Shown here piece by piece: positions 13,690 to 50,077 of a DNA stretch of 64,000 nt. The DNA comes from Syntrophaceae bacterium. Lineage in GTDB: Bacteria > Desulfobacterota > Syntrophia > Syntrophales > PHBD01. The notes under the pieces are model-generated. The model did not search any database, was not told the origin of the DNA, and saw nothing but the letters and a program-made list of their open reading frames with translations. The stretch covers positions 186,001-250,000 of the forward strand of contig JABLXX010000002.1 in the NCBI GenBank assembly GCA_013177825.1, in the 5' to 3' direction. How positions within the stretch are numbered: the first letter of the stretch is position 1; each line of letters begins with the position of its first letter. Both the position numbers and the translations under genes were made by a program.

Positions 13690-14190
13690 ATGAACGCGTC
13701 CCAACTGTCCGATCGTCTGAAAAGAATCCTCGCGTCGCCCCTTCCGTATCATCTGCTCCGGGTGGCGATGGCGGCGCTGTTTCTGTACGCGGGCGGCGTC
13801 AAGCTCCTGGATCCGAAGGCCTTTGCCGTCACCATCTCGGCCTACAACCTGATACCGGAGCCGCTTCTCCCGGTGGTCGCCATCGGCCTGCCGCTGGTTG
13901 AGGTCATCGCGGGAATCGGCCTCCTGTTCCAGGTCCGGGGGAGCCTGACGGGCATCGCCGCCCTGATGGTCCTCTTCATCGCCGTCTTGGGCTATGGCAT
14001 TTTGAGCGATCTGGACGTCGACTGCGGCTGCTTCGGCGCGGAAGAACTGGCCAGGAGGAGCAGCCTTCAGGATGCCTTTATCCGTGATCTCGTGATTACG
14101 GGGATCGTCATTCCCTACCTGTACTGGTACCAGCGTTTCCGGACCCGAGCGGGTCTCAACAGAATCCAGGAAGAGACGAAAGGAGAATAA
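13690..14190 (+). CDS. MauE/DoxX-like redox-associated membrane protein
   Basis: 166 residues with four hydrophobic segments (about 22-38, 52-72, 82-105 and 133-150). The opening LLRVAMAALFLYAGGVKLLDP and the motif DVDCGCFG after the third segment are typical of the MauE/DoxX-like family. These are small membrane proteins that go with periplasmic thiol-redox or methylamine dehydrogenase maturation; the CxC pair is the presumed redox-active site. It lies 6 nt before the periplasmic rhodanese, so the two form an operon and may handle a sulfur or thiol substrate at the outer face of the membrane. Confidence 0.82.
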   Translation: MNASQLSDRLKRILASPLPYHLLRVAMAALFLYAGGVKLLDPKAFAVTISAYNLIPEPLLPVVAIGLPLVEVIAGIGLLFQVRGSLTGIAALMVLFIAVLGYGILSDLDVDCGCFGAEELARRSSLQDAFIRDLVITGIVIPYLYWYQRFRTRAGLNRIQEETKGE

Positions 14191-14196
14191 GGAATC

Positions 14197-14709
14197 ATGA
14201 TGAAACGGAAAGCGGTTTTGGGTATGGCGCTGTGCCTGGCCCTGGTCTTCGGCTTCGCCGGGGCGGCGGTGGCGGCATGGGGCGCCAGGGAACTCGAGAC
14301 GGAAAAGGTCGCCGTGACCTTCGCCGCCGAAGTGGCGCGAGGCGGCTACAAGGTCGTGGCCACTCCGGAACTGAAGGCCTGGATGGACCAGAAGAAACCC
14401 ATGCTGATCATCGACACCATGCCCTTCGAGGCGAGCTACAAGAAGCAGCATGTCCCCGGGGCCGTCCAGATGGAGTTCCCCATCCCGGAGATGACGAAGC
14501 TGGACGACAAGACGAAGGCTGCCCTGGAAAAGCTCCTCGGTCCCGACAAAAACCGCCTGATCGTCTTCTACTGCGGGTTTGTGAAATGCACCCGCAGCCA
14601 CAACGGCGCCATGTGGGCCGTGAAGCTGGGATACAAAAACGTCTATCGCCACCCGGGCGGAATCAAGGCCTGGGACGAGGCGGACTATCCCATTGAAAAG
14701 GTGAAATAG
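14197..14709 (+). CDS. Exported rhodanese-domain protein
   Basis: 170 residues. Residues 1-27 are a signal peptide (VLGMALCLALVFGFAGAAVAA). A single rhodanese domain follows: VVATPELKAWMDQKKPMLIIDT, the KKQHVPGAVQ segment, the active-site loop FYCGFVKCTRSHNGA with the catalytic Cys, and YKNVYRHPGGIKAWDEADYP. The active-site loop carries a second Cys five residues after the first. Rhodaneses carry sulfane sulfur as a Cys persulfide. The pairing with the MauE-like gene 6 nt upstream suggests a periplasmic sulfur or redox relay. The substrate is unknown. Confidence 0.9.
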   Translation: MMKRKAVLGMALCLALVFGFAGAAVAAWGARELETEKVAVTFAAEVARGGYKVVATPELKAWMDQKKPMLIIDTMPFEASYKKQHVPGAVQMEFPIPEMTKLDDKTKAALEKLLGPDKNRLIVFYCGFVKCTRSHNGAMWAVKLGYKNVYRHPGGIKAWDEADYPIEKVK

Positions 14710-14838: not shown

Positions 14839-15588
14839 ATGAAAGAAATTCCTTTACTGCTGGAGCAAAGATGTTCACATCATCCTGAAGGTGGCATGTC
14901 CCGCCGGGATTTTCTCCTTTTTCTGCTCCTCACGACGGGGGCCGTGGTCATCGGTCCGCGGGGACGGCTCCTGGCCGCCCAGGTTCCGGGGGCGGCGGCT
15001 TGGCCGAGAGGCTGGCCCGTCCGGGGGACTCCCCTGGCGGCGGATCCGAAAACGGGGACCGTGGCGATGTACGCGGAAATCAGCCTGCGGCACCTCACCG
15101 AGACGACGACCCACTGGGGCATCGGCTGCGAAACGGGAAAATTCGCCGACCGGTTCATCCTGGTCTCGCCGGCGGAGCCCCCGGCGCTTTACGACGCCCT
15201 GATCCGAATCGGGGCGCGGCCCGGGAATAACCTGGCGCCGGACGGTTACGGAAAAACCGTGGAGGGTGACGTCCTAGCCCTGACCGCCGCGTGGCCGGGG
15301 CTTCCGCGGGAGGTGGACGCAGGCGGCCTTTTTTACGACTCCTCGGGAAAGGGGTTCCGGTTCCGCTTCGGCGGGAACCGGAGGGCGGCGGAGGAGCAGC
15401 GGACGGGCTGCCTGACCTGCTTGGAGTCCTGCCCCGTCGGCATCACGAGCAACGCCGTCTATCCGCACCTGAGCACGGCCCGGAGGATCTTCAGGCCCAA
15501 CTCCCGGTTCCGGGGCCGTCCGGAGGTCCTGCCGGCCCGGGAGGCGTTTCCCCTGGTCGTCTTTTACCGGCTGGCCGGGAAGGGGTAA
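14839..15588 (+). CDS. Exported YdjY-like protein with a Cys-rich cluster
   Basis: 249 residues from ATG 14839; a shorter start at residue 20 (MSRRDFLLFLLL) is possible and would begin right at the export signal. SRRDFLLF plus the hydrophobic run LLLTTGAVVIGP looks like a Tat signal, suiting a protein that folds around a cofactor. The centre (THWGIGCETGKFADRFILVS... ALIRIGARPGNN) resembles the YdjY domain. Near the C-terminus lies GCLTCLESCPVG, a CxxCxxxCP pattern able to hold an Fe-S cluster or metal. It sits 54 nt before the Hdr/TVP38 fusion gene, suggesting a shared electron-transfer role, which is inferred. Confidence 0.72.
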   Translation: MKEIPLLLEQRCSHHPEGGMSRRDFLLFLLLTTGAVVIGPRGRLLAAQVPGAAAWPRGWPVRGTPLAADPKTGTVAMYAEISLRHLTETTTHWGIGCETGKFADRFILVSPAEPPALYDALIRIGARPGNNLAPDGYGKTVEGDVLALTAAWPGLPREVDAGGLFYDSSGKGFRFRFGGNRRAAEEQRTGCLTCLESCPVGITSNAVYPHLSTARRIFRPNSRFRGRPEVLPAREAFPLVVFYRLAGKG

Positions 15589-15642: not shown

Positions 15643-17514
15643 ATGCTGAAGAGAATGAGTGATTCCCGGAAAAATGGATCTGCGAAGGAGGCTGTCGCGC
15701 CGGCGGCGCAGGCGGTCCGTCCCGCCCTGAGGGGACTCCTGGCCGCCATGGCGGCGGACTGCAAGGACTGCAACCTCTGTGTGGAGGAATGCGGGTTCCT
15801 GGAGAAATACGGGACGCCCGGCGAGATCGCCCGGCGTTACGACCCGTCGTCTGCGGAAGGGCAGATCCTTCCCTTCGAGTGCAGCCTCTGCAGCTTGTGC
15901 GACGCCGTCTGCCCCGCCGGCCTCGCTCCCCGGAACCTGTTTATGGAGATGCGCCGCGAGTCAGCGGATCGAGGGAAGGGCGCTTTTCCCGAACACGAAG
16001 GCCTCCTGGCCTACGAGCGCCGTGGCATGTCCCGCCGGTTCACCTGGTACGGCCTCCCCGAGGGCTGCCGGGCCGTTCTCTTTCCCGGGTGCGCCCTGCC
16101 CGGAACGAGGCCGGAGCGGACATGGGAACTGTTCGAAACGCTTCGCGGGAACGAACCCTCTCTGGGCATCGTCCTCGACTGCTGCGGCCGGATCTCCGGG
16201 GACCTCGGCCGGGAAGCCCAGTGCACCGCCATGTTCTCGGAAATGCGGGACTGGCTTTTGGAACGCGGTGTCCGGGAGGTCCTCGTCGCCTGCCCCAACT
16301 GCCACGACATGTTCCGGGAGCACGGCGGCGGGCTGGCGGTCCGGACGGTCTATGAGGTCCTGCCGGTGGCGGAGCCGCCTGCCATGGCAAGTAACAGCGG
16401 CGTGCTGGTCCACGATCCCTGCGGCATCCGCTTTCACGGGGCAGCCCACGACGCCGTGCGACGGCTCGTGGCCGGAGCGGGCATCCGGCCGGCCGACATG
16501 GAACACGCGAGGGAAAGGACGCTCTGCTGCGGCAATGGGGCGGGTGCGGACTGCCTTTCTCCGGAGCTGTCCGGCCGCTGGGCTGGCCGTGCGGCGGCGG
16601 AGATCGGAAACCGCACGGCCGTCACCTACTGCGCCGGTTGCGCCGGCCGGCTGGGCGAGCGCTCTCCTGCGGTTCACGTCCTCGATGTTCTGCGGGAGCC
16701 GGAACAGGCCCTGGCGGGGAAGATCCGGATCGCGAAGGCGCCCTTCACCTACCTGAACCGGCTCCGCCTCAAGAACCGCTTCCGGAAGGAGCTGCCGGTC
16801 GCCGCATCCCGGGAGCGGACCTTCCGGGCCGCTCCGGAAAAGAAGGGCGGGTGGGCCCTGCGGCTGCTCCTGCTGGCCGTTCTGGTGGGGGCCATCGCGG
16901 CGATTCGCCTGACCGGGGCGACCCGCTACCTGGACCAGGATGCCCTGCGGGGCCTCATCGCCGGGTACGGCATCCTCGCCCCGGCCCTTTACATGCTGAT
17001 CTACACGGTGGCCCCGGCGCTGCTCCTGCCCGGCCTGCCGCTCACCATCGCCGGAGGCATTCTCTTCGGCCCCTTCTGGGGGGTCGTCTACACCATCACG
17101 AGCGCCACCGCCGGCGCCTGCCTCGCCTTTCTCGTCGCTCGCTACCTGGCCCGGGACTGGGTCGAGAAGAAGCTGAGAAGCCCGCGGTGGCGGCGACTCG
17201 ACGAGGGGGTCGAGCGGCACGGCTGGAAAGTCGTGGCCTTCACCCGTCTGATCCCGCTGTTTCCGTTCAACCTCCTGAACTACGCCTTCGGGATGACGAA
17301 GATCCGCTTCTGGCCTTACGCCGTGGCGACGTTTCTATGCATGCTCCCGGCAACCGTCGCCTACATTGTTTTTTCGAGTTCGCTCCTGGACCTGATCCGG
17401 GGGAAGGTTTCCACCACGCTGGTAGTCGGCATCGGCCTCGTCGTCCTGGTGTCGCTGATTCCCGTTTTCTGGCGCCGCTGGCAGGCGGGAAGGGGAGGGC
17501 GGGACCCGCTGTAG
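15643..17514 (+). CDS. Fusion of an HdrD-like Fe-S/CCG protein and a TVP38/TMEM64 (SNARE-associated) membrane domain
   Basis: 623 residues. Two [4Fe-4S] ferredoxin motifs (C40xxC43xxC46xxxC50 and C80xxC83xxC86xxxC90P) are followed by two CCG-type cysteine domains (LDCCG near 180 with ACPNC at 217-220; HDPCG at 257-261 with LCCGNG at 294-299 and YCAGC at 329-333). This is the plan of heterodisulfide-reductase HdrD or GlpC-type subunits. After a linker (365-400) comes a membrane region of about five spans, with GGILFGPFWGVVYTITSATA and FTRLIPLFPFNLLNYAFG, the hallmarks of the TVP38/TMEM64/DedA-like family. One continuous frame joins both halves. Thiol/disulfide electron transfer at the inner membrane face is likely; the partner and direction are unknown. 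Confidence 0.9.
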   Translation: MLKRMSDSRKNGSAKEAVAPAAQAVRPALRGLLAAMAADCKDCNLCVEECGFLEKYGTPGEIARRYDPSSAEGQILPFECSLCSLCDAVCPAGLAPRNLFMEMRRESADRGKGAFPEHEGLLAYERRGMSRRFTWYGLPEGCRAVLFPGCALPGTRPERTWELFETLRGNEPSLGIVLDCCGRISGDLGREAQCTAMFSEMRDWLLERGVREVLVACPNCHDMFREHGGGLAVRTVYEVLPVAEPPAMASNSGVLVHDPCGIRFHGAAHDAVRRLVAGAGIRPADMEHARERTLCCGNGAGADCLSPELSGRWAGRAAAEIGNRTAVTYCAGCAGRLGERSPAVHVLDVLREPEQALAGKIRIAKAPFTYLNRLRLKNRFRKELPVAASRERTFRAAPEKKGGWALRLLLLAVLVGAIAAIRLTGATRYLDQDALRGLIAGYGILAPALYMLIYTVAPALLLPGLPLTIAGGILFGPFWGVVYTITSATAGACLAFLVARYLARDWVEKKLRSPRWRRLDEGVERHGWKVVAFTRLIPLFPFNLLNYAFGMTKIRFWPYAVATFLCMLPATVAYIVFSSSLLDLIRGKVSTTLVVGIGLVVLVSLIPVFWRRWQAGRGGRDPL

Positions 17515-17641: not shown

Positions 17642-18244
17642 ATGCGTGATATCATCGATGCCCGGGGCCTGGCATGCCCCCAGCCGGTGATCCTGGCCCG
17701 GAAGGCCCTGGAAACCAGTGAACGGATCGCAGTGATCGTGGACAATACAACAGCGGTGGAGAATATCCGCCGCCTCGGGGCGAAGATGGGCTGCGACATG
17801 GTCGTGGAGGAAAAAGGCGGGGGGATCGTCCACATCCACCTGACCCGCGGCTCCGCGCCGGCTGCGGAGGTGGACCTGGACGAACTGGCCGTCTGCACGC
17901 CCGCGGGCGGAGGTTCTTACATCGTAACCCTTCCGGAGAACCGGATGGGCCGGGGGAACGAGGCCCTGGGGGAGATCCTGATCAAGGCCTTCATCCATAC
18001 CCTGACGCAGCTCGATCCCCTTCCGGCAAAGGTGGTCTGCTACAACACGGGGGTTTTCCTGGCCCTCGACGACTCCCCGGCTCTGGATGACCTGCGCCGG
18101 CTCAAGGATGCAGGCGTGGAGGTTCTCGTGTGCGGGACGTGCCTCAATTTCTTCAACGTCACGGACCGCCTGTCCGTCGGATCGGTGTCCAACATGTACG
18201 AGATCGCCGAATCCATGGCGGCGGCCCGGGTGGTCTCGCCGTGA
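17642..18244 (+). CDS. yedF: YedF-type sulfurtransferase-like selenium metabolism protein
   Basis: 200 residues. The N-terminal ~75 residues are a TusA-like domain with the conserved GLACPQPVILARKAL (reactive Cys in CPxP). The C-terminal ~110 residues are a DsrE-like fold with KVVCYNTGVFLA and VLVCGTCLNFF. This two-domain arrangement is the YedF family associated with selenium metabolism. Its neighbours support this: a DUF3343 protein overlapping by 4 nt and a LysR regulator, the set commonly found beside selenium genes. No selA, selB or selD occurs in the window. AAGGAGG lies about 8 nt upstream of the start. Confidence 0.88.
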   Translation: MRDIIDARGLACPQPVILARKALETSERIAVIVDNTTAVENIRRLGAKMGCDMVVEEKGGGIVHIHLTRGSAPAAEVDLDELAVCTPAGGGSYIVTLPENRMGRGNEALGEILIKAFIHTLTQLDPLPAKVVCYNTGVFLALDDSPALDDLRRLKDAGVEVLVCGTCLNFFNVTDRLSVGSVSNMYEIAESMAAARVVSP

Positions 18245-18471
18245 CGGAGGCGGTCGAGACCTGGTGGGTGGTCCTCTTCGACTCCGTCCATCACGCCATG
18301 CAGGCGGAGAAGCTGCTCATTGAGGAGGGCATTTCCCACAAGCTCATCCCGGTGCCCCGGCACATCAGCGCCGACTGCGGCGTCTGCATTCGTTTCGCCG
18401 CTGCGGAGCGGCCCCGCGTCGCCGATATCCTGGACCGTCGCGGCACGTACCGCGAGATCCGCCCCCTTTAA
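18241..18471 (+). CDS. DUF3343 putative Se/S carrier-like protein
   Basis: 76 residues starting at GTG 18241, which overlaps the yedF stop (GTGA), so the two are translationally coupled. The sequence WWVVLFDSVHHAMQAEKLL, then LIPVPRHISADCGVCIRF, matches the short DUF3343 family, whose paired CGVC cysteines are thought to hold sulfur or selenium. It follows YedF and precedes the LysR gene by 18 nt. Confidence 0.82.
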   Translation: MTEAVETWWVVLFDSVHHAMQAEKLLIEEGISHKLIPVPRHISADCGVCIRFAAAERPRVADILDRRGTYREIRPL

Positions 18472-18489: not shown

Positions 18490-19461
18490 ATGAACGCCAG
18501 ACAGGACTACTCGCGCAGCATTACGTTTCAGCACCTGGAATCCCTGGCGGCCCTGGCCGAGACCGGCAGCTTCTCCCGGGCCGCCCAGCGGCTCCACCTC
18601 TCCCAGCCGTCCCTTACGCGGCACATCCAAAACCTGGAAGAACTGGCCGGCACACCGCTCGTGGTACGGCAGAGGGAGGGAGGAATCCTCACTTCGGAAG
18701 GTCTGGTTCTCCTCGACTACGCCCGACGGATCCTCCGCCTTCGGGAGGACGCGTGGGACAAGCTCTCCTACAGCCGGGACGGGGGAAGGGGACGCATGAA
18801 CGTGGCCGCGAGCACGATCCCGGCCACCTACATCCTGCCCCGGGTGATCTCCGCCTGGCACCGCCTGCAGCCCGGCATCACGGTCAACGTCCAGACCCAC
18901 GACAGCGAAGAGGCCCTGCAGGCCGTGCTTCACGATCAGGCCGAGATCGGCCTTGTCGGGAAGAAGACGGTTCACCGCGGGATCGTATCCGTTGCCCTCT
19001 GGAGCGACCGCATCGTCCTGGCGGTGTCGCCCGATCATCCCTGGGCCGGGGAGCGCGAGCTTCTCCCGGAGCAACTGTCGGAGGGAGCCTTCATCGGAAG
19101 GGAGCGGGGCTCGGCGACCCGGGCGACCGTGGAGGCGTATATCCGGGCGGAAACCGGCCTGGATCCGTCCTGCCTTCATGCCCTGTGCGAAGTGGGAAGC
19201 TCCGAGGCCGTCAAGGAGGCGGTCCTGGCGGGGGTGGGACCGGCTTTTATCTCCGTCCACGCTGTAAGGCGGGAGGTGGAGGCGGGAAGGTTACGTATTG
19301 TGCCAGTGAGAGGCTGGAACATCGAACGGTCCTTCCACCTGATCCATAAAAAGAACTTCCGGTTCAAGCCCCATCATGCGCTCTTTCTGGACTTTCTGAA
19401 GGAATTCCGGACGGGGGATGAGGCGGATCAGACGCAGAGCTCCACGACGTCGCCGTCCTGA
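18490..19461 (+). CDS. LysR-family regulator, selenium/sulfur-metabolism type
   Basis: 323 residues. The N-terminal winged helix-turn-helix (residues 12-70) includes LAETGSFSRAAQRLHLSQPS, the LysR recognition helix, followed by a linker helix and a periplasmic-binding-like effector domain (RMNVAASTIPATYILP to about 300). Its place 18 nt after DUF3343 fits the LysR group that accompanies YedF/DUF3343 genes. Its last 34 nt overlap the 3' end of the opposite-strand GTPase gene, and the last ~10 residues (DQTQSSTTSPS) look like read-through tail. Its target is probably its own operon; the effector is unknown. Confidence 0.9.
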   Translation: MNARQDYSRSITFQHLESLAALAETGSFSRAAQRLHLSQPSLTRHIQNLEELAGTPLVVRQREGGILTSEGLVLLDYARRILRLREDAWDKLSYSRDGGRGRMNVAASTIPATYILPRVISAWHRLQPGITVNVQTHDSEEALQAVLHDQAEIGLVGKKTVHRGIVSVALWSDRIVLAVSPDHPWAGERELLPEQLSEGAFIGRERGSATRATVEAYIRAETGLDPSCLHALCEVGSSEAVKEAVLAGVGPAFISVHAVRREVEAGRLRIVPVRGWNIERSFHLIHKKNFRFKPHHALFLDFLKEFRTGDEADQTQSSTTSPS

Positions 19462-20660: not shown

Positions 20661-20963
20661 ATGCGGATCTGGAAAAAGCTCGGTATCCTTGCCTGCGCAG
20701 TCCTGTTCCTCTGCGCCATGCTTGGCACCGCCGTGACCGCCGGAGGGCCGCCGCTGAAGGACAACGCGTGCGGTTCATGCCACAAGGACTACGGCAAAAT
20801 CATGCCCAAACAGCATCCGGACGTCGGCAAGGGAGATGCCTGCCTGACCTGCCACGCCCCCGACCCGGCCAAGAGCGAACCGACGAAGTTTTCAACGGGT
20901 GTCCACAAGGTGCATCAGAACGGGAAGGCAAAGCTGGAATGCGCGGCTTGCCATAAGCTCTGA
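20661..20963 (+). CDS. Small periplasmic triheme cytochrome c
   Basis: 100 residues: a signal peptide (about 1-27; ACAVLFLCAMLGTAVTA), then a mature chain of only about 73 residues with three CxxCH haem sites (CGSCH, CLTCH, CAACH, the last four residues from the end). Extra His residues (for example HPDVGK, HKVHQ) can serve as distal ligands, giving bis-His low-potential haems as in cytochrome c3/c7 types. GAAAGGAG precedes the start. It stands alone between divergent and convergent neighbours with its own terminator. A role as a soluble periplasmic electron shuttle is inferred. Confidence 0.9.
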   Translation: MRIWKKLGILACAVLFLCAMLGTAVTAGGPPLKDNACGSCHKDYGKIMPKQHPDVGKGDACLTCHAPDPAKSEPTKFSTGVHKVHQNGKAKLECAACHKL

Positions 20964-44058: not shown

Positions 44059-47000
44059 TTATCGGATGAAAACCACCGACGTGAGAGCGCCCGGTTTCGT
44101 CTCCATTTCCTGCCGGGCGACCTGAAGGCCCATCAGGACGGCCTCCATGGCGTCGACGGGCAGGGAAGAATCGCCAGCCCGGATCATGAGGACACCGTCG
44201 GGAGTGACCGTCGCCGTCAGCCGGGAGGTCAGGCCGCTTGCCGCGGTCAGGGAGAAGGAAACCGATATCCCCGGGGCCGTGTCGGCAACCCCGGGTGCCG
44301 TCCCGGTCGGTGCCGATGCCGTCCGGGTCAGGGAGAGGGCGGTGCTGTTTTCCCGGACCTGGAACGCGCCTGCGAAGGCGGGTGCCGCTCTTCCGTCCTG
44401 CACAAAGACCGGAAGGGTAGCGGTCCCGGCCATGGAATCGGGTATGGCCGACCCGCCGGTAAGCAGGGTCGTGGTCGGTCCCGCCGTCCGGATGATCACC
44501 GGTGCCAGGAAGGAAGAGGATGCGAAGAAGATGCGCTCATCGCGGTGCCGGAGGTCGGCCGCATGCCCGACGTTCTCCCGCGCCGTCTCGATGACGGCCG
44601 CCAGCAGCATGGTCATGCCGGACGGGTTCACATCGGGCGGGGTCGCGGCGACAACGGTGAGGGTTCCGTTGACGAACCGGAGATGGTAGTTGCTCGACGT
44701 CAGGCCGGACGGATCGATGCTGTAGGTTCCGGCCCGGACGGCTCCCTGGCTCGATCCGCTGTAGGCGAGAAGGCCGCCCAGGACGTTGCTGTTTTCCCCG
44801 TTGACGAAACCGGCATAGGTGACGCCGTTGCCGCCGGAATAGGCAGTTCCGTCGTACAGCTTCCGGTCGTCGTTGGCCGTGACGGTCAGGAGGGCCGGGG
44901 TGATGTCCGCCGAGGCGGTGGCCGTGGAATTGTGGAGCCTGTAGTTGCCGCTGTCCGTGCCGTCCAGGGAGATGTCGGCAACGTGGATGGATTTTCCCGT
45001 TCCGGCATTCTTGTCGTCGAAGTCTGCTTTCTGGCTGAAGGTGACGGTGTCGCCGGTGATGATGTCCGATGACGATCCGGTGACCGCGGCCGCCGTGGTT
45101 CCGTCGTAGACCTTGTCTTTCCCCGTATAGCTGACGGTCACGTCCCTGGGGGTGATCGTGATGGCGGAGGTGCCGTCGCCCTTGATGTCGTATCCCTGCT
45201 GTCCGGAATAAAGGCCGCCGATGGTCACGGAGTATGTTCCGACGTCTTTGCCGTCGGTTGTGTAGACCGCGGTTCCGTAGACCTTGCTTTTGTCGAAATC
45301 GTCCGGCACGTTCGTCCACGCGTACGATCCGTTCTTGATGCCGGTGGTTCCGTCGTACACTCTCGTGCTGCTCGCATCGGACAGGATGATGGTGGCGGGC
45401 GTCATGAAATTCCGGAGGAGGGGATAGGTGCAGCCGTCATAGATGCGCCAGACCTTTCCGGTCTGGCCGGCGTCGTCGATATCCCAGCCGGCGGAGGCAA
45501 ACGTGGCCAGGTTCTTCATCTCGGTGGTGGTCTTGCCGATACCGGCGGCGGATGCCGTCCGGCCCGAGGCTTCCATGTCCCAGAAGCTGCCGGTGACCGT
45601 GCCGCTGTTCGTTCCCACGAGCCCGCCGACTTCGGATGTTCCGCTCACCTTGCCGGTGCTGTAGCTGTTCCTGATGGTTCCGCCGGCAGCGTTCGTCCCC
45701 ACGAGTCCTCCCACGGACGAATTTCCGGCAACCGTTCCGGTGCTGTAGGTGTTGGTTACCTCGCCACTGTTGAGTCCGACGAGCCCGCCGACGGACGATG
45801 TCCCGGTCACACTCCCATTGTTGAAAGAGCCGGTCACGGTGTTCATATTTGATCCGGCAACCCCTCCGACGTCGGAGGTTCCGGTCACAGTGCCGCTGTT
45901 GTAACTGTTTTCGATCCTGCCTCCATTCAATCCCGCGAGCCCGCCGGTTCTTTTGGAACCTATCACCGCGCCGGTGTTCCAGCTGTCTTCGATGGTGCCG
46001 CCCATGTCGTTTTTTCCTGCGAGTCCGCCGGCGTCGTCCAGGTCCGTACCGGGGAGATTTCGAACCTCCCCGCTGTTTCCGCTCCTGGTGATGGACCCGG
46101 AATTCGTGCCGACCAGCCCGCCGATACGGGCCAGGCCGTTCATCGTGCCGGTGTTTTCGCTGCTTGTGATGGCTCCTTCGTTCTGTCCCGCGATGCCGCC
46201 GCCGTCTCCCGTACGGACGGTCACCGTTCCGGAATTGCGGCTGTTGATGATTTTCGCCGTGTTCTTGTCTCTGCTGATTCCCGCGATGCCGCCGACAAAC
46301 ATGTCACCGCTCACCGGGCCGCTGTTGCTGCTGTCGCGGACCGTCCCCCGATTGTCTCCCACGAGGCCGCCGACGTACCCGACCCCCGTCACCTTGCCGT
46401 TGCCGTGACTGCTGCCGGTGATGGTTCCTTCGTTGTATCCCACCAGCCCGCCGGTTCCGTTGTATTCGGCATTCATTTCCACGGTGTTTTTTACCGTGGC
46501 CGTGCTGTGGCTGTTGATCACCTTCCCGAAGTTGCGCCCGACCAGCGCGCCCAGGGATCCCGATCCCGTGATGGTGCCGCCCGACAGTCGGACATTGCGG
46601 ACCTCGCCGCTTGTCCCGACCGCGCCGAACAGGCCGCCGGACGATACCTGGCGATTCTTGATGTAGATGTTCGAGATGGTATGGCCCAGCCCTTCGAAGG
46701 TGCCGGTATAAGGATTCGCATTGTCTCCGATCGGTTCAAAGCCGTAACGGACAGGGGGTTTTTGTATGGTTTCGTTCCAGGTATCGGTTCCCTTGGCGTT
46801 GATGTCGGCTCCCAGGGCGTAGTTTTTCGTGAGATCTCCGTTCATGCCCTGGAGATCGGTCCCGGTGCGGCTTTTTTCGGCGCCCAGGCGGGTGATGACG
46901 GTGAAGATCTTCTCCTCGCCCACGAAGCCGAGGCGGGTGCGGAGGTTCTCGCCCTCAGGCAGGTTGACCCTGGCATTGATGAAATAATCCGCCGTGGTCC

Positions 47001-48324
47001 CGTTGATGACGCCGTCGCTTGCCCCCTGGCCGTACTCCAGGGTGAGCCTGGCCGTTCCGGAGCCGTAGAGATCCCGGTTGATCTCGATGTTGCGGTCGGC
47101 GGAGAGGGTGAGGGTGTTGCCGATCCAGGTGACGTGATCGTTGACGAAGATGTCGCCGTCGCCATCGGCGGCGCCGTTGGAGCTCCGGATCGTGAGGCTG
47201 GTGTTGGCCAGGGCCGCGGTTGCCGCGGCGCCGGTCATGTCGCCGCTGCTTTCGGCGATGGTGAAGTCCCGGGGATCGATGAGCCAGAGGCCCGTGGCGC
47301 CGCGTTCGGCCCGGGTGGTGACCCGGGCGTCGTCCCGGACGGTCACCGTGGCCGCGGAGGTCTCGATGAATCCGCCGTTGCCGCCGTCGGGGGCGGAGGC
47401 GTCGAGGGTTCCGCTGACGACCACGGTTCCCCGGTCCCCGTCGGCCAGGAGGAGGATCCGGCCGGACCGGTTCTCCAGGGTCCTGGCCTCGATGACGCCG
47501 GAGTGGTTCACCACGGCCCGGGTGAGCTCGCCGGCAGCCATGGCCGAGAGGATCACCGTCCCGCCGTCGGCCCGGATCAGCCCGCCGTTTTCGATCAGGG
47601 CGTCCACGGTCCCCTGGGGGATGGTGAAGTTGATGAGGCGGTCCCCGGCAAAGTCGAGGTTCACCCTGTCTCCGGCGGCCATGGCCACCATGCCGCCGGT
47701 GGCCTCAATCTCTCCGGTGTTGGAGATGGCCGGGGAGAGGAAGGCGACATGGCCGCCGTTCGCGGCGGTGATGGTTCCCTCGTTGACGATGCGGCCGGCG
47801 ATCCCGGAAGCGGCAAAGGCATGGTTACCGGCCAGGAAGTCCTCGTCGGTGATGTTGAGGGTGGAGGCCACGAGCCCGCCGACGTTGACCTGGGCGGTGG
47901 GACTGAAGAAGATGCCCGCGGGATTTACGAGGAAGACCCGGCCGTTGGCGGAGAGGCGGCCGTAGATCTGGCTGGGGGTCCGGTCCAGGACCCGGTTGAG
48001 GGCGACGCTGGAGGACCCGGGCTGCCGGAAGGTGACGGAGGCGTCGCGGCCGATGTTGAAGGTGTTCCAGTAGGCGATGAGGCGGTCGGTCTGCTGGGTG
48101 ACGGTCATGGAGGAGCCGGTCCGGGTGATGCCGCCCTGGCCGGAGACGATTCGTCCGCCCGCGGGGAGGGTGTTGGGATCGAGGGCACAGACCGGGGCGG
48201 GTCCCGCCAGGATCATGAAAAAAATCGATACCACAAGGAGCGATCCGGCACCGAGGCCCTGTCTCCTGCCGGCCGCGGGAACGACCGGCTTCTTCCTGCC
48301 GATGTGCATAAGATGTCGTTTCAT
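44059..48324 (-). CDS. Two-partner secretion exoprotein (filamentous-haemagglutinin-like adhesin) with GLUG and MBG/YDG repeats
   Basis: 1421 residues from ATG 48324 (MKRHLMHIGRKK) with AAAGGA upstream. The long signal peptide ends near residue 47 (VCA-LDP). Residues about 55-170 are the TPS domain (GGRIVSGQGGITRTG, LIAYWNTFNIGRDASVTF, FLVNPAGIFFSPTAQVNVGG). A beta-helix region follows. Residues roughly 640-1010 hold about ten GLUG repeats (GGLVGxNxGTITxSxNxGxVTG), then two MBG/YDG units (VYDGTT, SGNYRLHNSTAT, KLYDGTAY, LTSSNYHLRFVNGTLTV). The transporter lies 10 nt upstream. It is exported to the surface; adhesion is the family role. The start of the longer frame at 48741 overlaps the transporter and is not used. 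Confidence 0.92.
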   Translation of the reverse strand: MKRHLMHIGRKKPVVPAAGRRQGLGAGSLLVVSIFFMILAGPAPVCALDPNTLPAGGRIVSGQGGITRTGSSMTVTQQTDRLIAYWNTFNIGRDASVTFRQPGSSSVALNRVLDRTPSQIYGRLSANGRVFLVNPAGIFFSPTAQVNVGGLVASTLNITDEDFLAGNHAFAASGIAGRIVNEGTITAANGGHVAFLSPAISNTGEIEATGGMVAMAAGDRVNLDFAGDRLINFTIPQGTVDALIENGGLIRADGGTVILSAMAAGELTRAVVNHSGVIEARTLENRSGRILLLADGDRGTVVVSGTLDASAPDGGNGGFIETSAATVTVRDDARVTTRAERGATGLWLIDPRDFTIAESSGDMTGAAATAALANTSLTIRSSNGAADGDGDIFVNDHVTWIGNTLTLSADRNIEINRDLYGSGTARLTLEYGQGASDGVINGTTADYFINARVNLPEGENLRTRLGFVGEEKIFTVITRLGAEKSRTGTDLQGMNGDLTKNYALGADINAKGTDTWNETIQKPPVRYGFEPIGDNANPYTGTFEGLGHTISNIYIKNRQVSSGGLFGAVGTSGEVRNVRLSGGTITGSGSLGALVGRNFGKVINSHSTATVKNTVEMNAEYNGTGGLVGYNEGTITGSSHGNGKVTGVGYVGGLVGDNRGTVRDSSNSGPVSGDMFVGGIAGISRDKNTAKIINSRNSGTVTVRTGDGGGIAGQNEGAITSSENTGTMNGLARIGGLVGTNSGSITRSGNSGEVRNLPGTDLDDAGGLAGKNDMGGTIEDSWNTGAVIGSKRTGGLAGLNGGRIENSYNSGTVTGTSDVGGVAGSNMNTVTGSFNNGSVTGTSSVGGLVGLNSGEVTNTYSTGTVAGNSSVGGLVGTNAAGGTIRNSYSTGKVSGTSEVGGLVGTNSGTVTGSFWDMEASGRTASAAGIGKTTTEMKNLATFASAGWDIDDAGQTGKVWRIYDGCTYPLLRNFMTPATIILSDASSTRVYDGTTGIKNGSYAWTNVPDDFDKSKVYGTAVYTTDGKDVGTYSVTIGGLYSGQQGYDIKGDGTSAITITPRDVTVSYTGKDKVYDGTTAAAVTGSSSDIITGDTVTFSQKADFDDKNAGTGKSIHVADISLDGTDSGNYRLHNSTATASADITPALLTVTANDDRKLYDGTAYSGGNGVTYAGFVNGENSNVLGGLLAYSGSSQGAVRAGTYSIDPSGLTSSNYHLRFVNGTLTVVAATPPDVNPSGMTMLLAAVIETARENVGHAADLRHRDERIFFASSSFLAPVIIRTAGPTTTLLTGGSAIPDSMAGTATLPVFVQDGRAAPAFAGAFQVRENSTALSLTRTASAPTGTAPGVADTAPGISVSFSLTAASGLTSRLTATVTPDGVLMIRAGDSSLPVDAMEAVLMGLQVARQEMETKPGALTSVVFIR

Positions 48325-48334
48325 ATCGATTCCT

Positions 48335-50077
48335 TTAGAAAAAGAGCATGAACTCGAGGCCGAAGCGGCCGTTCGAGTCGAGATTCTCGGCATCCAGTCC
48401 GGTGGTGCTGCGCCCGTCGTTTTCGCCGATCCTGTGCGCGTAGTAGGCGCGCAGGCTGTACAGGCCGGATTTCCCCACCTGGATTCCGAGACCCGCGCCG
48501 GAGAGCCGGTATTCGTTTTTGCCGGTCGCGTTTGTGATGGCCCCCGGCCAGAGGTCCTTGTAGAGCCGGATCCAGCCGGTATCGATGAACCCGATGAGCT
48601 GTGCGGCGGCCCAGGGAGGCGTGAACGGCAGGGCCAGGCGGGTCTCGAAGGTGAGGATGTGCCCCTCCGATCCGCAGGCCTCCAGTCCCGAGTAGGCCCG
48701 GACGCCGGAATCGCCACCGAGATGAAACTGGTGCGCGGCATCGAGATTGTCCGAGGCGAATTGACCCCGAACCCATCCGAAAAGGGAGACCAGGCGGTTC
48801 AGGTTCTGGAGGCGCGACAGCGAATAGTTCAGCTTGAAGGCCCCGCCACTCACTCCGGGGCCCGCGTCATCGTCGGATTCGTCGTCGGCGTTTCCCGACA
48901 GGTCCGCACGGGTCGCCGACACCGAGAGCAGGGCGTCCGTCCGTCCGCCGCCCCGGAAGGCATCGGCGAGGTTGCCCGACAGGAAAAGGCCCGCCGAGGA
49001 TACCCGCCTGTCGCTGATGTTGACGCCGGCGGCCTCCGATCCCAGGATCTGATACTCCAGCTCCAGGCCCGTCCGGACGTCGGCGCGGCGGGAGCGGAGC
49101 AGGGGATATTCGAACTTCGCACCGATGACGTCACCCCGGAATTTCATGTCGAGGGATGCAAATTCTTCCCCGGGCCTGCCGGCCAGACTGATATAGGACA
49201 GGGTCCCGTTCCATCCGGTCGATCCGAAAGGGATGCTGTAATAGACGGCGGCTCCGATCGAGCGTTCGGCACCCATCGCGAGGAGCCTGATCCTGTCGCC
49301 GATTCTCAGGGGATCGTTGGCGGCGATCATGCCGAATCCCTGCAACGCTCCGGTGTGCCGTGAGCCGAAGCTGTTGCCGATCAGCGACCCCTGGAAGATC
49401 GGCCCTTCGGAGGCATGGACGGCGATCCGGGTTGTGCCCGGCGTCTCCGCCGGCTCCAGGGAGACCCGGGCGCTGATGCCGGGCAGATCGTTCATGAGGA
49501 GGGCCGCCCGCTCGACGTCCTCCATCCGGGCGGAGCCGTCCGCCGGCAGGGCCCGTTCGACGATTCCCTTGAGGAGGGAGGGGCGGATCCGGTGGGGGCC
49601 CTGCATGTCGATCCGGACCTGCCCGTCGAATCGCCCGGCGAGGATGGCAATCTCGACGATTCCCTCCGTGATGTCCTGCCGGGGAAGGTAGGCCCGGGCC
49701 AGGAACAGGTCTTTCTTTTCCCGGAGGTAATTGGTGACGAGGGCTGCCGTCCGCTGCAGGTCGGCCATCCCCATCCGTTTCCCGATGCTGTCTTTAACCA
49801 GGGCCTGCAGTTCGGCCTCCCCGACGATCCCTGCGGCGCCGGTGAAGCGGAACTTCCTGACCGGGACCCTGATCCCCGAATCCTTCACGGGGCCTTCATC
49901 GGTTTTTTTCTCCCGGTCCATCGTGGGCGGCGGCAGGCGGTCAGGAACGGGTGAAACGGACTGCTTCCATTCCTTGAGCAGCGTTCCGGGATCGGGGGGA
50001 GAAACGGCGGCTGCCGTACCGCACAGCAGGATGGCGACCAGGACCGGGCACAGAAAAAGAAATGGCGTATGTTTCAT
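48335..50077 (-). CDS. Two-partner secretion outer-membrane transporter (FhaC/ShlB type)
   Basis: About 580 residues from ATG 50077 (MKHTPFLFLCP). A signal peptide runs to about residue 24. A POTRA_2 domain follows (VPVRKFRFTGAAGIVGEAELQALVKDSIG...YLPRQDITEGIVEIAILAG), then a second POTRA-like region and a 16-strand-type barrel from about 210. The L6 tip motif is SGVRAYSG (family VRGY/VRAY). The chain ends in Phe (EFMLFF), as outer-membrane proteins do. It secretes the adhesin encoded 10 nt downstream. The 304-base gap 50078-50381 upstream shows no convincing promoter. Confidence 0.93.
   Translation of the reverse strand: MKHTPFLFLCPVLVAILLCGTAAAVSPPDPGTLLKEWKQSVSPVPDRLPPPTMDREKKTDEGPVKDSGIRVPVRKFRFTGAAGIVGEAELQALVKDSIGKRMGMADLQRTAALVTNYLREKKDLFLARAYLPRQDITEGIVEIAILAGRFDGQVRIDMQGPHRIRPSLLKGIVERALPADGSARMEDVERAALLMNDLPGISARVSLEPAETPGTTRIAVHASEGPIFQGSLIGNSFGSRHTGALQGFGMIAANDPLRIGDRIRLLAMGAERSIGAAVYYSIPFGSTGWNGTLSYISLAGRPGEEFASLDMKFRGDVIGAKFEYPLLRSRRADVRTGLELEYQILGSEAAGVNISDRRVSSAGLFLSGNLADAFRGGGRTDALLSVSATRADLSGNADDESDDDAGPGVSGGAFKLNYSLSRLQNLNRLVSLFGWVRGQFASDNLDAAHQFHLGGDSGVRAYSGLEACGSEGHILTFETRLALPFTPPWAAAQLIGFIDTGWIRLYKDLWPGAITNATGKNEYRLSGAGLGIQVGKSGLYSLRAYYAHRIGENDGRSTTGLDAENLDSNGRFGLEFMLFF

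What the first reader, a model, noticed from the sequence alone, without database searches (positions are those of the whole stretch)
15643..17514. HdrD-like Fe-S/CCG protein fused to a TVP38/TMEM64 membrane domain
Two ferredoxin motifs and two CCG domains continue in one frame into a DedA-like membrane domain. Hdr-type subunits usually use a cytochrome b-type or other membrane anchor; TVP38 proteins are linked to lipid handling or transport. The fusion suggests a membrane-bound thiol/disulfide reductase acting on a transported or lipid-linked substrate. It sits among a rhodanese, MauE-like, YdjY-like, YedF and DUF3343 genes.
Basis: partly seen in the sequence, partly recalled or inferred. Interest (0 to 1): 0.65.

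Follow-up and report, generated by a model that had tools for sequence, protein, structure and literature searches.

The report
Selenium-locus Fe-S reductase fused to TVP38
A bacterial gene in a selenium-handling cluster joins a heterodisulfide-reductase-type iron-sulfur enzyme to a DedA/TVP38 membrane domain in one protein, a combination found in many sulfate- and metal-reducing bacteria that points to a possible membrane machine for taking up or reducing selenium, a step for which no dedicated system is known.

Summary
In detail: 15643-17514 is one open 623-codon frame with a two-[4Fe-4S] ferredoxin module, two complete CCG domains and a VTT (TVP38/DedA) domain. It is no artefact. The fusion is 82% identical in the same genus. 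Of the 80 best dicluster loci in named genomes 45 are fused, 35 in this order and 10 in the reverse order. Separate adjacent genes also occur; in one relative they overlap as ATGA.

Relatives lie within 3 kb of selD in 8 of 80 loci (0.17 expected), and the nearest NCBI model is named 'diclust_near_Sec'.

The soluble half has the EtfD/HdrB fold and keeps all ten HdrB-type CCG cysteines. The membrane half resembles E. coli YdjX, and the neighbour resembles E. coli YdjY.

Most likely it is a membrane-bound reductase of seleno- or persulfide-type substrates that feeds selenide to SelD. That the VTT domain moves the substrate is a guess; lipid handling has no support. New variant of a known kind.

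The parts
13690..14190 (+). MauE/DoxX-type membrane protein
   Evidence: PF07291 E=2e-27; within 3 kb of the dicluster gene in 8 of 80 loci
14197..14709 (+). Rhodanese with an N-terminal hydrophobic leader and CxxxxC motif (CGFVKC); resembles the rhodanese part of selenoprotein TsoB (UxxxxU)
   Evidence: PF00581 E=8e-18; NF045694 TsoB E=3e-31 over the N-terminal part only, below cut-off; motif of TsoB from PMC13188914; a rhodanese lies within 3 kb in 34 of 80 loci
14839..15588 (+). YdjY-domain protein, probably exported (RRDFL twin-arginine-like leader if started at 14896), GCLTCLESCPVG cysteine motif
   Evidence: NF040466 91.9 bits, cut-off 50; 39% identical to E. coli YdjY, E=2e-39; adjacent to the dicluster gene in 25 of 80 loci
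15643..17514 (+). Fusion protein: dicluster (HdrB/EtfD-like) plus VTT, 623 aa
15751..15924 (+). Two cubane [4Fe-4S] motifs, C40-C43-C46-C50 and C80-C83-C86-C90
   Evidence: Fer4_17 E=1.4e-7; all eight Cys invariant in 39 fusions
16078..16314 (+). First CCG domain: C150, C180, C181, C217, C220
   Evidence: PF02754; five Cys invariant in 39 fusions; C181 is Thr in EtfD
16390..16647 (+). Second CCG domain: C260, C295, C296, C330, C333
   Evidence: PF02754 second stretch; five Cys invariant
16852..17493 (+). VTT (TVP38/DedA, COG0398, YdjX-like) membrane domain
   Evidence: PF09335 E=4.5e-31; 37% identical to E. coli YdjX, E=3e-40
17642..18244 (+). YedF, TusA-DsrE fusion, selenium metabolism
   Evidence: TIGR03527 205.6 bits, cut-off 110
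18241..18471 (+). DUF3343 Se/S carrier; likely GTG start overlapping the YedF stop (GTGA)
   Evidence: PF11823 E=2e-21; the longest ORF starts at 18130
18490..19461 (+). LysR regulator nearest to the selenium-metabolism subfamily
   Evidence: NF040786 236.8 bits against a cut-off of 250, the best of 61 models

Best explanation
A cytoplasmic-membrane reductase of the selenium (and possibly persulfide sulfur) supply route. Shown: one protein joins an HdrB/EtfD-fold Fe-S module with two complete CCG cysteine sets to a YdjX-like VTT domain, in a cluster with YedF, DUF3343, a selenium-type LysR, a rhodanese and YdjY, in a genome with selD and selB. Inferred: electrons from an unknown donor enter the two cubane clusters and reach paired noncubane clusters in the CCG domains, which cleave a seleno-, per- or disulfide bond held on a rhodanese/YdjY-type or small-thiol carrier. 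The released selenide (or sulfide) passes to YedF and DUF3343 and on to SelD. Most speculative: the VTT domain passes the selenium or sulfur species across the membrane from the YdjY/rhodanese side to the reductase; otherwise it only anchors the enzyme.
For: Cluster content. selD with in-frame UGA 29 kb upstream, selB over cut-off. selD within 3 kb in 8 of 80 loci against 0.17 expected, in all four positions/orientations; rhodanese 34, YdjY 25, YedF 11, with density falling beyond 1 kb. A deep 34%-identical fusion next to selD, rhodanese, YedF and DUF3343 in G054. Nearest NCBI model 'diclust_near_Sec'. Fold: EtfD Z 19.1, HdrB Z 16. Ten CCG cysteines invariant, including the one EtfD lacks. Repeated fusion in both orders and tight adjacency when split. 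YdjX/YdjY likeness. A DedA protein was linked to selenite uptake/resistance in Cupriavidus (Ledgham 2005, as cited in PMC8679861).
Against: Most dicluster loci (72 of 80) have no selD within 3 kb; rhodanese and YdjY are commoner partners, which fits sulfur as well. selD is in 356 of 394 genomes of the phylum, so co-occurrence says little (Fisher p 0.017). Loci are related, so the binomial value overstates. The LysR is below its cut-off. No electron donor is identified. No solved structure or transport data for this VTT type; the fold search hardly tested that half.
Confidence: 0.5

Rival explanations
1. Sulfur, not selenium: the protein reduces persulfides or polysulfides delivered by the rhodanese and YdjY, and the selenium genes are neighbours because Se and S trafficking share carriers.
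For: Rhodanese (34) and YdjY (25) are nearer and commoner neighbours than SelD (8). DUF3343 also occurs in SelD-lacking organisms (PMC5322559). Hosts are mostly sulfate reducers.
Against: YedF, the selenium-type LysR and SelD recur at the loci; the NCBI model for relatives is named for Sec proximity.
Confidence: 0.25
2. Electron relay to or from the membrane, as in EtfD or HdrDE: the dicluster passes electrons to quinone or another membrane partner and VTT is only a docking anchor.
For: Closest fold is EtfD, a membrane-bound electron wire (PMC13083937).
Against: No invariant histidine in the VTT part for a heme; the EtfD-type Cys-to-Thr change is absent; no cytochrome b family recurs among the neighbours.
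Confidence: 0.12
3. Metalloid detoxification: the complex reduces or expels excess selenite, tellurite or mercury species.
For: A DedA protein and selenite resistance in Cupriavidus (PMC8679861); COG0398-flavoprotein (mercuric-reductase-like) fusions are known (PMC10127716).
Against: Neighbours are selenium assimilation genes (YedF, DUF3343, SelD), with no resistance genes recurring.
Confidence: 0.1
4. Lipid-linked substrate or lipid scrambling.
For: VTT proteins are flippases or scramblases in other subfamilies (PMC10127716).
Against: COG0398 lacks the UndP-flippase residues (PMC10127716); YdjX and YdjZ do not rescue the E. coli DedA defect (PMC3836016); no lipid genes recur nearby.
Confidence: 0.03

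Closest known systems
NF045663 pyridine nucleotide-disulfide oxidoreductase/dicluster-binding protein ('diclust_near_Sec')
   Same: Homologous dicluster half (E=3e-53, profile 308-668 of 759), selenium-locus association
   Different: Carries a GltD-like flavoprotein half and no VTT; the window protein scores 181 against a cut-off of 530
HdrB/HdrD heterodisulfide reductase
   Same: Fold of the CCG part (Z 16) and all ten CCG cysteines
   Different: VTT in place of a cytochrome b partner; selenium context; no methanogen coenzymes expected; about 15-19% identity
EtfD (mycobacterial ETF:menaquinone oxidoreductase)
   Same: Ferredoxin plus two CCG domains in one chain with a membrane domain; Z 19.1 over 332 residues
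   Different: EtfD has a b heme in an N-terminal membrane domain and Thr539 in the first CCG site (PMC13083937); here VTT at the C-terminus and Cys181
E. coli YdjX-YdjY-YdjZ cassette
   Same: YdjX-like VTT (37%) and YdjY (39%) side by side, rhodanese YnjE and selD nearby
   Different: No dicluster protein in the E. coli cluster; an AhpD-like protein and an ABC transporter instead; function unknown
COG0398 DedA-pyridine nucleotide-disulfide oxidoreductase fusions (PMC10127716)
   Same: VTT domain fused to a thiol-redox enzyme
   Different: Flavoprotein partner, tied there to aerobic metabolism; here an Fe-S partner in anaerobes

Membership tests
HdrB/HdrD-type noncubane Fe-S disulfide reductase | Two CCG domains with five cysteines each | tested here: met
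   C150, C180, C181, C217, C220 and C260, C295, C296, C330, C333 invariant in 39 fusions
HdrB/HdrD-type noncubane Fe-S disulfide reductase | HdrB fold | tested here: met
   5odc_B Z 16.1, 216 residues, rmsd 3.2
HdrB/HdrD-type noncubane Fe-S disulfide reductase | Membrane cytochrome b partner (HdrE) or HdrA partner | tested here: inconclusive
   No cytochrome b among neighbour families seen in 4 or more loci; not searched for by its own model
HdrB/HdrD-type noncubane Fe-S disulfide reductase | Cleaves a disulfide at noncubane clusters | not testable with these tools
   Needs biochemistry
EtfD | Thr in place of the second Cys of the first CCG motif (linear [3Fe-4S]) | tested here: not met
   C181 invariant in 39 fusions; Thr539 in EtfD
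EtfD | Membrane domain with bis-histidine b heme | tested here: not met
   No invariant His in the VTT part
NF045663 diclust_near_Sec | Whole-protein score over cut-off (530 bits) | tested here: not met
   181 bits; dicluster half only
COG0398 (TVP38/YdjX) DedA subfamily | VTT domain nearest to YdjX/YdjZ, no acidic residues in the first re-entrant segment | tested here: met
   PF09335; YdjX E=3e-40; residues 435-482 hold no D or E. COG models themselves were not run
[quoted passage not shown]
   No D or E in residues 435-482; criterion from PMC10127716
Prokaryotic selenium-metabolism gene set (YedF, DUF3343, LysR_Se, SelD) | Physical clustering with known selenium genes | tested here: met
   Window cluster and 80 loci
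Prokaryotic selenium-metabolism gene set (YedF, DUF3343, LysR_Se, SelD) | Restricted to SelD-bearing genomes | tested here: inconclusive
   70 of 72 dicluster genomes have selD against 286 of 322 others; selD is near-universal in the phylum

The most novel reading that the evidence does not exclude
The fusion is a dedicated selenium (or perselenide) uptake-and-reduction machine: periplasmic YdjY and rhodanese load a selenium species, the VTT domain carries it across the membrane, and the noncubane Fe-S clusters reduce it to selenide on arrival for YedF, DUF3343 and SelD. It would give COG0398 DedA proteins, including E. coli YdjX and YdjZ, a first substrate class.
Probability: 0.18. Interest if true: 0.88.

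Novelty: new variant of a known kind. Interest (0 to 1): 0.6.

Why it matters
Two reviews state that no high-affinity selenium transport system has been identified in prokaryotes (PMC13188914; PMC9312934), and COG0398 DedA proteins have no demonstrated bacterial substrate (PMC10127716). A conserved fusion of a COG0398 domain with an HdrB-type reductase inside selenium loci links the two gaps and names genes to delete, including E. coli ydjX, ydjY and ydjZ.

Tried and rejected
Frameshift or assembly error at the junction: rejected. Selenocysteine inside the dicluster domain: reading UGA through in the loci put no Sec at a conserved dicluster position (the one in-range case, L117, is at the very C-terminal end). 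A membrane cysteine as a conserved relay: C571 is Cys in 34 of 39 but Thr here, and C493 is Cys in 21 of 39, so neither is essential. Genome-level co-occurrence with selD: selD is too near-universal in the phylum to discriminate. A search centred on another phylum was not possible. No tRNA gene in the window or the two upstream stretches. Solved structures for the VTT half: none by sequence, and the fold comparison hardly tested that half. Haft and Tolstoy 2025 (the TsoB paper) is not held. No paper found that pairs TVP38 with a heterodisulfide-reductase-like protein or ydjXYZ with selenium. Genes tested around selD in this genome (L119) gave no further selenium hits.

Full report
Check of the observation. 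The frame 15643-17514 on the + strand is open for 623 codons. It carries two [4Fe-4S] motifs, two CCG domains and a VTT domain, all over Pfam gathering scores. The coding signal runs without a break through the junction, and the linker codons change mainly at third positions against the same-genus relative. The same-genus genome has the full fusion at 82% identity, and two other families of the order have it at 67% and 58%.

Is it more than one odd gene? Yes. A scan of named genomes returned 80 dicluster loci. Of these, 31 are dicluster-VTT, 4 dicluster-VTT plus a further membrane domain, 7 VTT-dicluster and 3 VTT-dicluster plus the further domain. That further domain is itself a distant VTT relative (hhalign 94.8%, E=5.6e-8). 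Some of the 35 unfused calls are cut by contig ends or frameshifts, so 45 of 80 is a lower bound. On a tree of the dicluster half the reverse-order fusions sit in a well-supported clade of 25 rows with unfused ones, and starred branches force at least 10 changes of the forward-fusion label. In G026 the two halves are separate genes whose stop and start overlap as ATGA. In G035 and G019 a VTT gene follows 77-105 bp downstream; by eye it is closer to YdjZ. So the two halves belong together functionally, whether fused or not.

What the soluble half is. Its closest solved relative by sequence is mycobacterial EtfD (E=3e-22), then HdrB. The AlphaFold model (pLDDT 88, pTM 0.69) aligns to EtfD with Z 19.1 over 332 residues and to HdrB with Z about 16. 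EtfD has Thr539 where Hdr has a cysteine, and therefore a linear [3Fe-4S] cluster in its first CCG domain (PMC13083937). Here that cysteine, C181, is invariant in 39 fusions, as are the other 17 Fe-S cysteines (alignment to EtfD). The site therefore looks Hdr-like, able to hold two noncubane clusters, and not EtfD-like. This is inference from sequence; no cluster has been measured. The relative placing of the two halves in the model should not be trusted at this pTM.

What the membrane half is. It is 37% identical to E. coli YdjX (E=3e-40) and weaker to YdjZ. Both cluster with the COG0398 type of DedA proteins, which lack the residues of the undecaprenyl-phosphate flippases (PMC10127716), and they do not rescue the E. 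coli DedA defect (PMC3836016). No histidine is invariant in this half, so a heme relay as in EtfD or HdrE is unlikely. Basic residues before the first and after the last membrane helix suggest that both ends face the cytoplasm (inference from sequence).

Context: selenium. The window holds MauE, rhodanese, YdjY, the fusion, YedF, DUF3343 and LysR on one strand with gaps of at most about 130 bp. YedF scores 205.6 against a cut-off of 110; the LysR is nearest to the selenium-metabolism model, just below its cut-off; the rhodanese resembles the rhodanese part of selenoprotein TsoB. YedF, DUF3343 and LysR_Se were proposed as selenium genes by Lin et al. 2015 (PMC5322559), whose text does not mention TVP38, DedA or heterodisulfide proteins. 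The genome has selD with an in-frame UGA 29 kb upstream of the fusion and selB over cut-off. The dicluster half best matches NCBI's 'diclust_near_Sec', and true members of that family in the phylum carry a GltD-like flavoprotein part instead of VTT.

Strength of the link. Within 3 kb of the dicluster gene in 80 loci are a rhodanese (34), YdjY (25), YedF (11), SelD (8) and MauE (8). SelD is expected there 0.17 times by chance (binomial 9e-12). The loci are related, so this value is too small, but selD occurs upstream and downstream and on either strand, which argues for repeated association. Densities of rhodanese and YdjY per kilobase fall more than tenfold beyond 1 kb, an internal control. 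A deeper fusion in G054, 34% identical, lies 2.5 kb from selD with rhodanese, MauE, LysR, YedF and DUF3343. Genome-level co-occurrence is weak because selD is in 356 of 394 genomes of the phylum.

E. coli parallel. ydjX-ydjY-ydjZ and the rhodanese gene ynjE lie in one stretch that ends about 6 kb from selD, and FNR activates ydjXYZ-ynjABCD and ynjE (PMC3688515). The window's YdjY is 39% identical to E. coli YdjY. I found no paper tying ydjXYZ to selenium, and the selD distance alone is weak evidence.

Mechanism. I favour a membrane-bound reductase that releases selenide (or sulfide) from a seleno- or persulfide carrier at paired noncubane clusters, for delivery by YedF and DUF3343 to SelD. The electron donor is unknown; in relatives a flavoprotein fused to the dicluster suggests NAD(P)H as a source. 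Transport by VTT is the least certain step. My estimates: selenium involvement about 0.75, Hdr-like bond cleavage about 0.6, VTT transport of the substrate about 0.3.

Novelty. The dicluster family is already modelled by NCBI, and fusions of COG0398 domains to flavoproteins are published (PMC10127716). The dicluster-VTT fusion and its selenium context were not described in any paper I could search; most subscription papers are not held. Hence 'new variant of a known kind'.

Noticed in passing
L114:7992-9650: Dicluster protein fused to a C-terminal rhodanese domain (552 aa, Desulfobulbaceae), an independent fusion of the same two partners that are neighbours in the window.
   Followed up: partly
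L028:513-2297: Dicluster protein fused to DUF3047 (594 aa), another unexplained partner.
   Followed up: no
L041, L051, L060, L062, L072, L079: Dicluster-VTT proteins of 820-895 aa with a second, degenerate VTT-like membrane domain (hhalign 94.8%, E=5.6e-8), giving two VTT units in one chain, as YdjX and YdjZ do in one operon.
   Followed up: partly
L067:10043-11530: A YdjY-rhodanese fusion (495 aa) next to the dicluster gene and selD.
   Followed up: no
L022:11002-13960: In G054 the fusion lies beside a double-cubane-cluster reductase, its activase and a NifU-like scaffold; double-cubane proteins recur near selenium-locus diclusters (6 of 80 loci).
   Followed up: partly
L121:2498-5200 and L127:5873-8524: 850-900 aa forms with a full GltD-like flavoprotein ahead of the dicluster, in L127 with two VTT genes downstream.
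   Followed up: partly
window 44059-48741 (-): 1560-aa two-partner-secretion exoprotein with YDG, GLUG and MBG repeats.
   Followed up: no
window 20661-20963 (+): 100-aa small multiheme cytochrome (c3/c7 type, several CxxCH) just beyond the selenium cluster.
   Followed up: no
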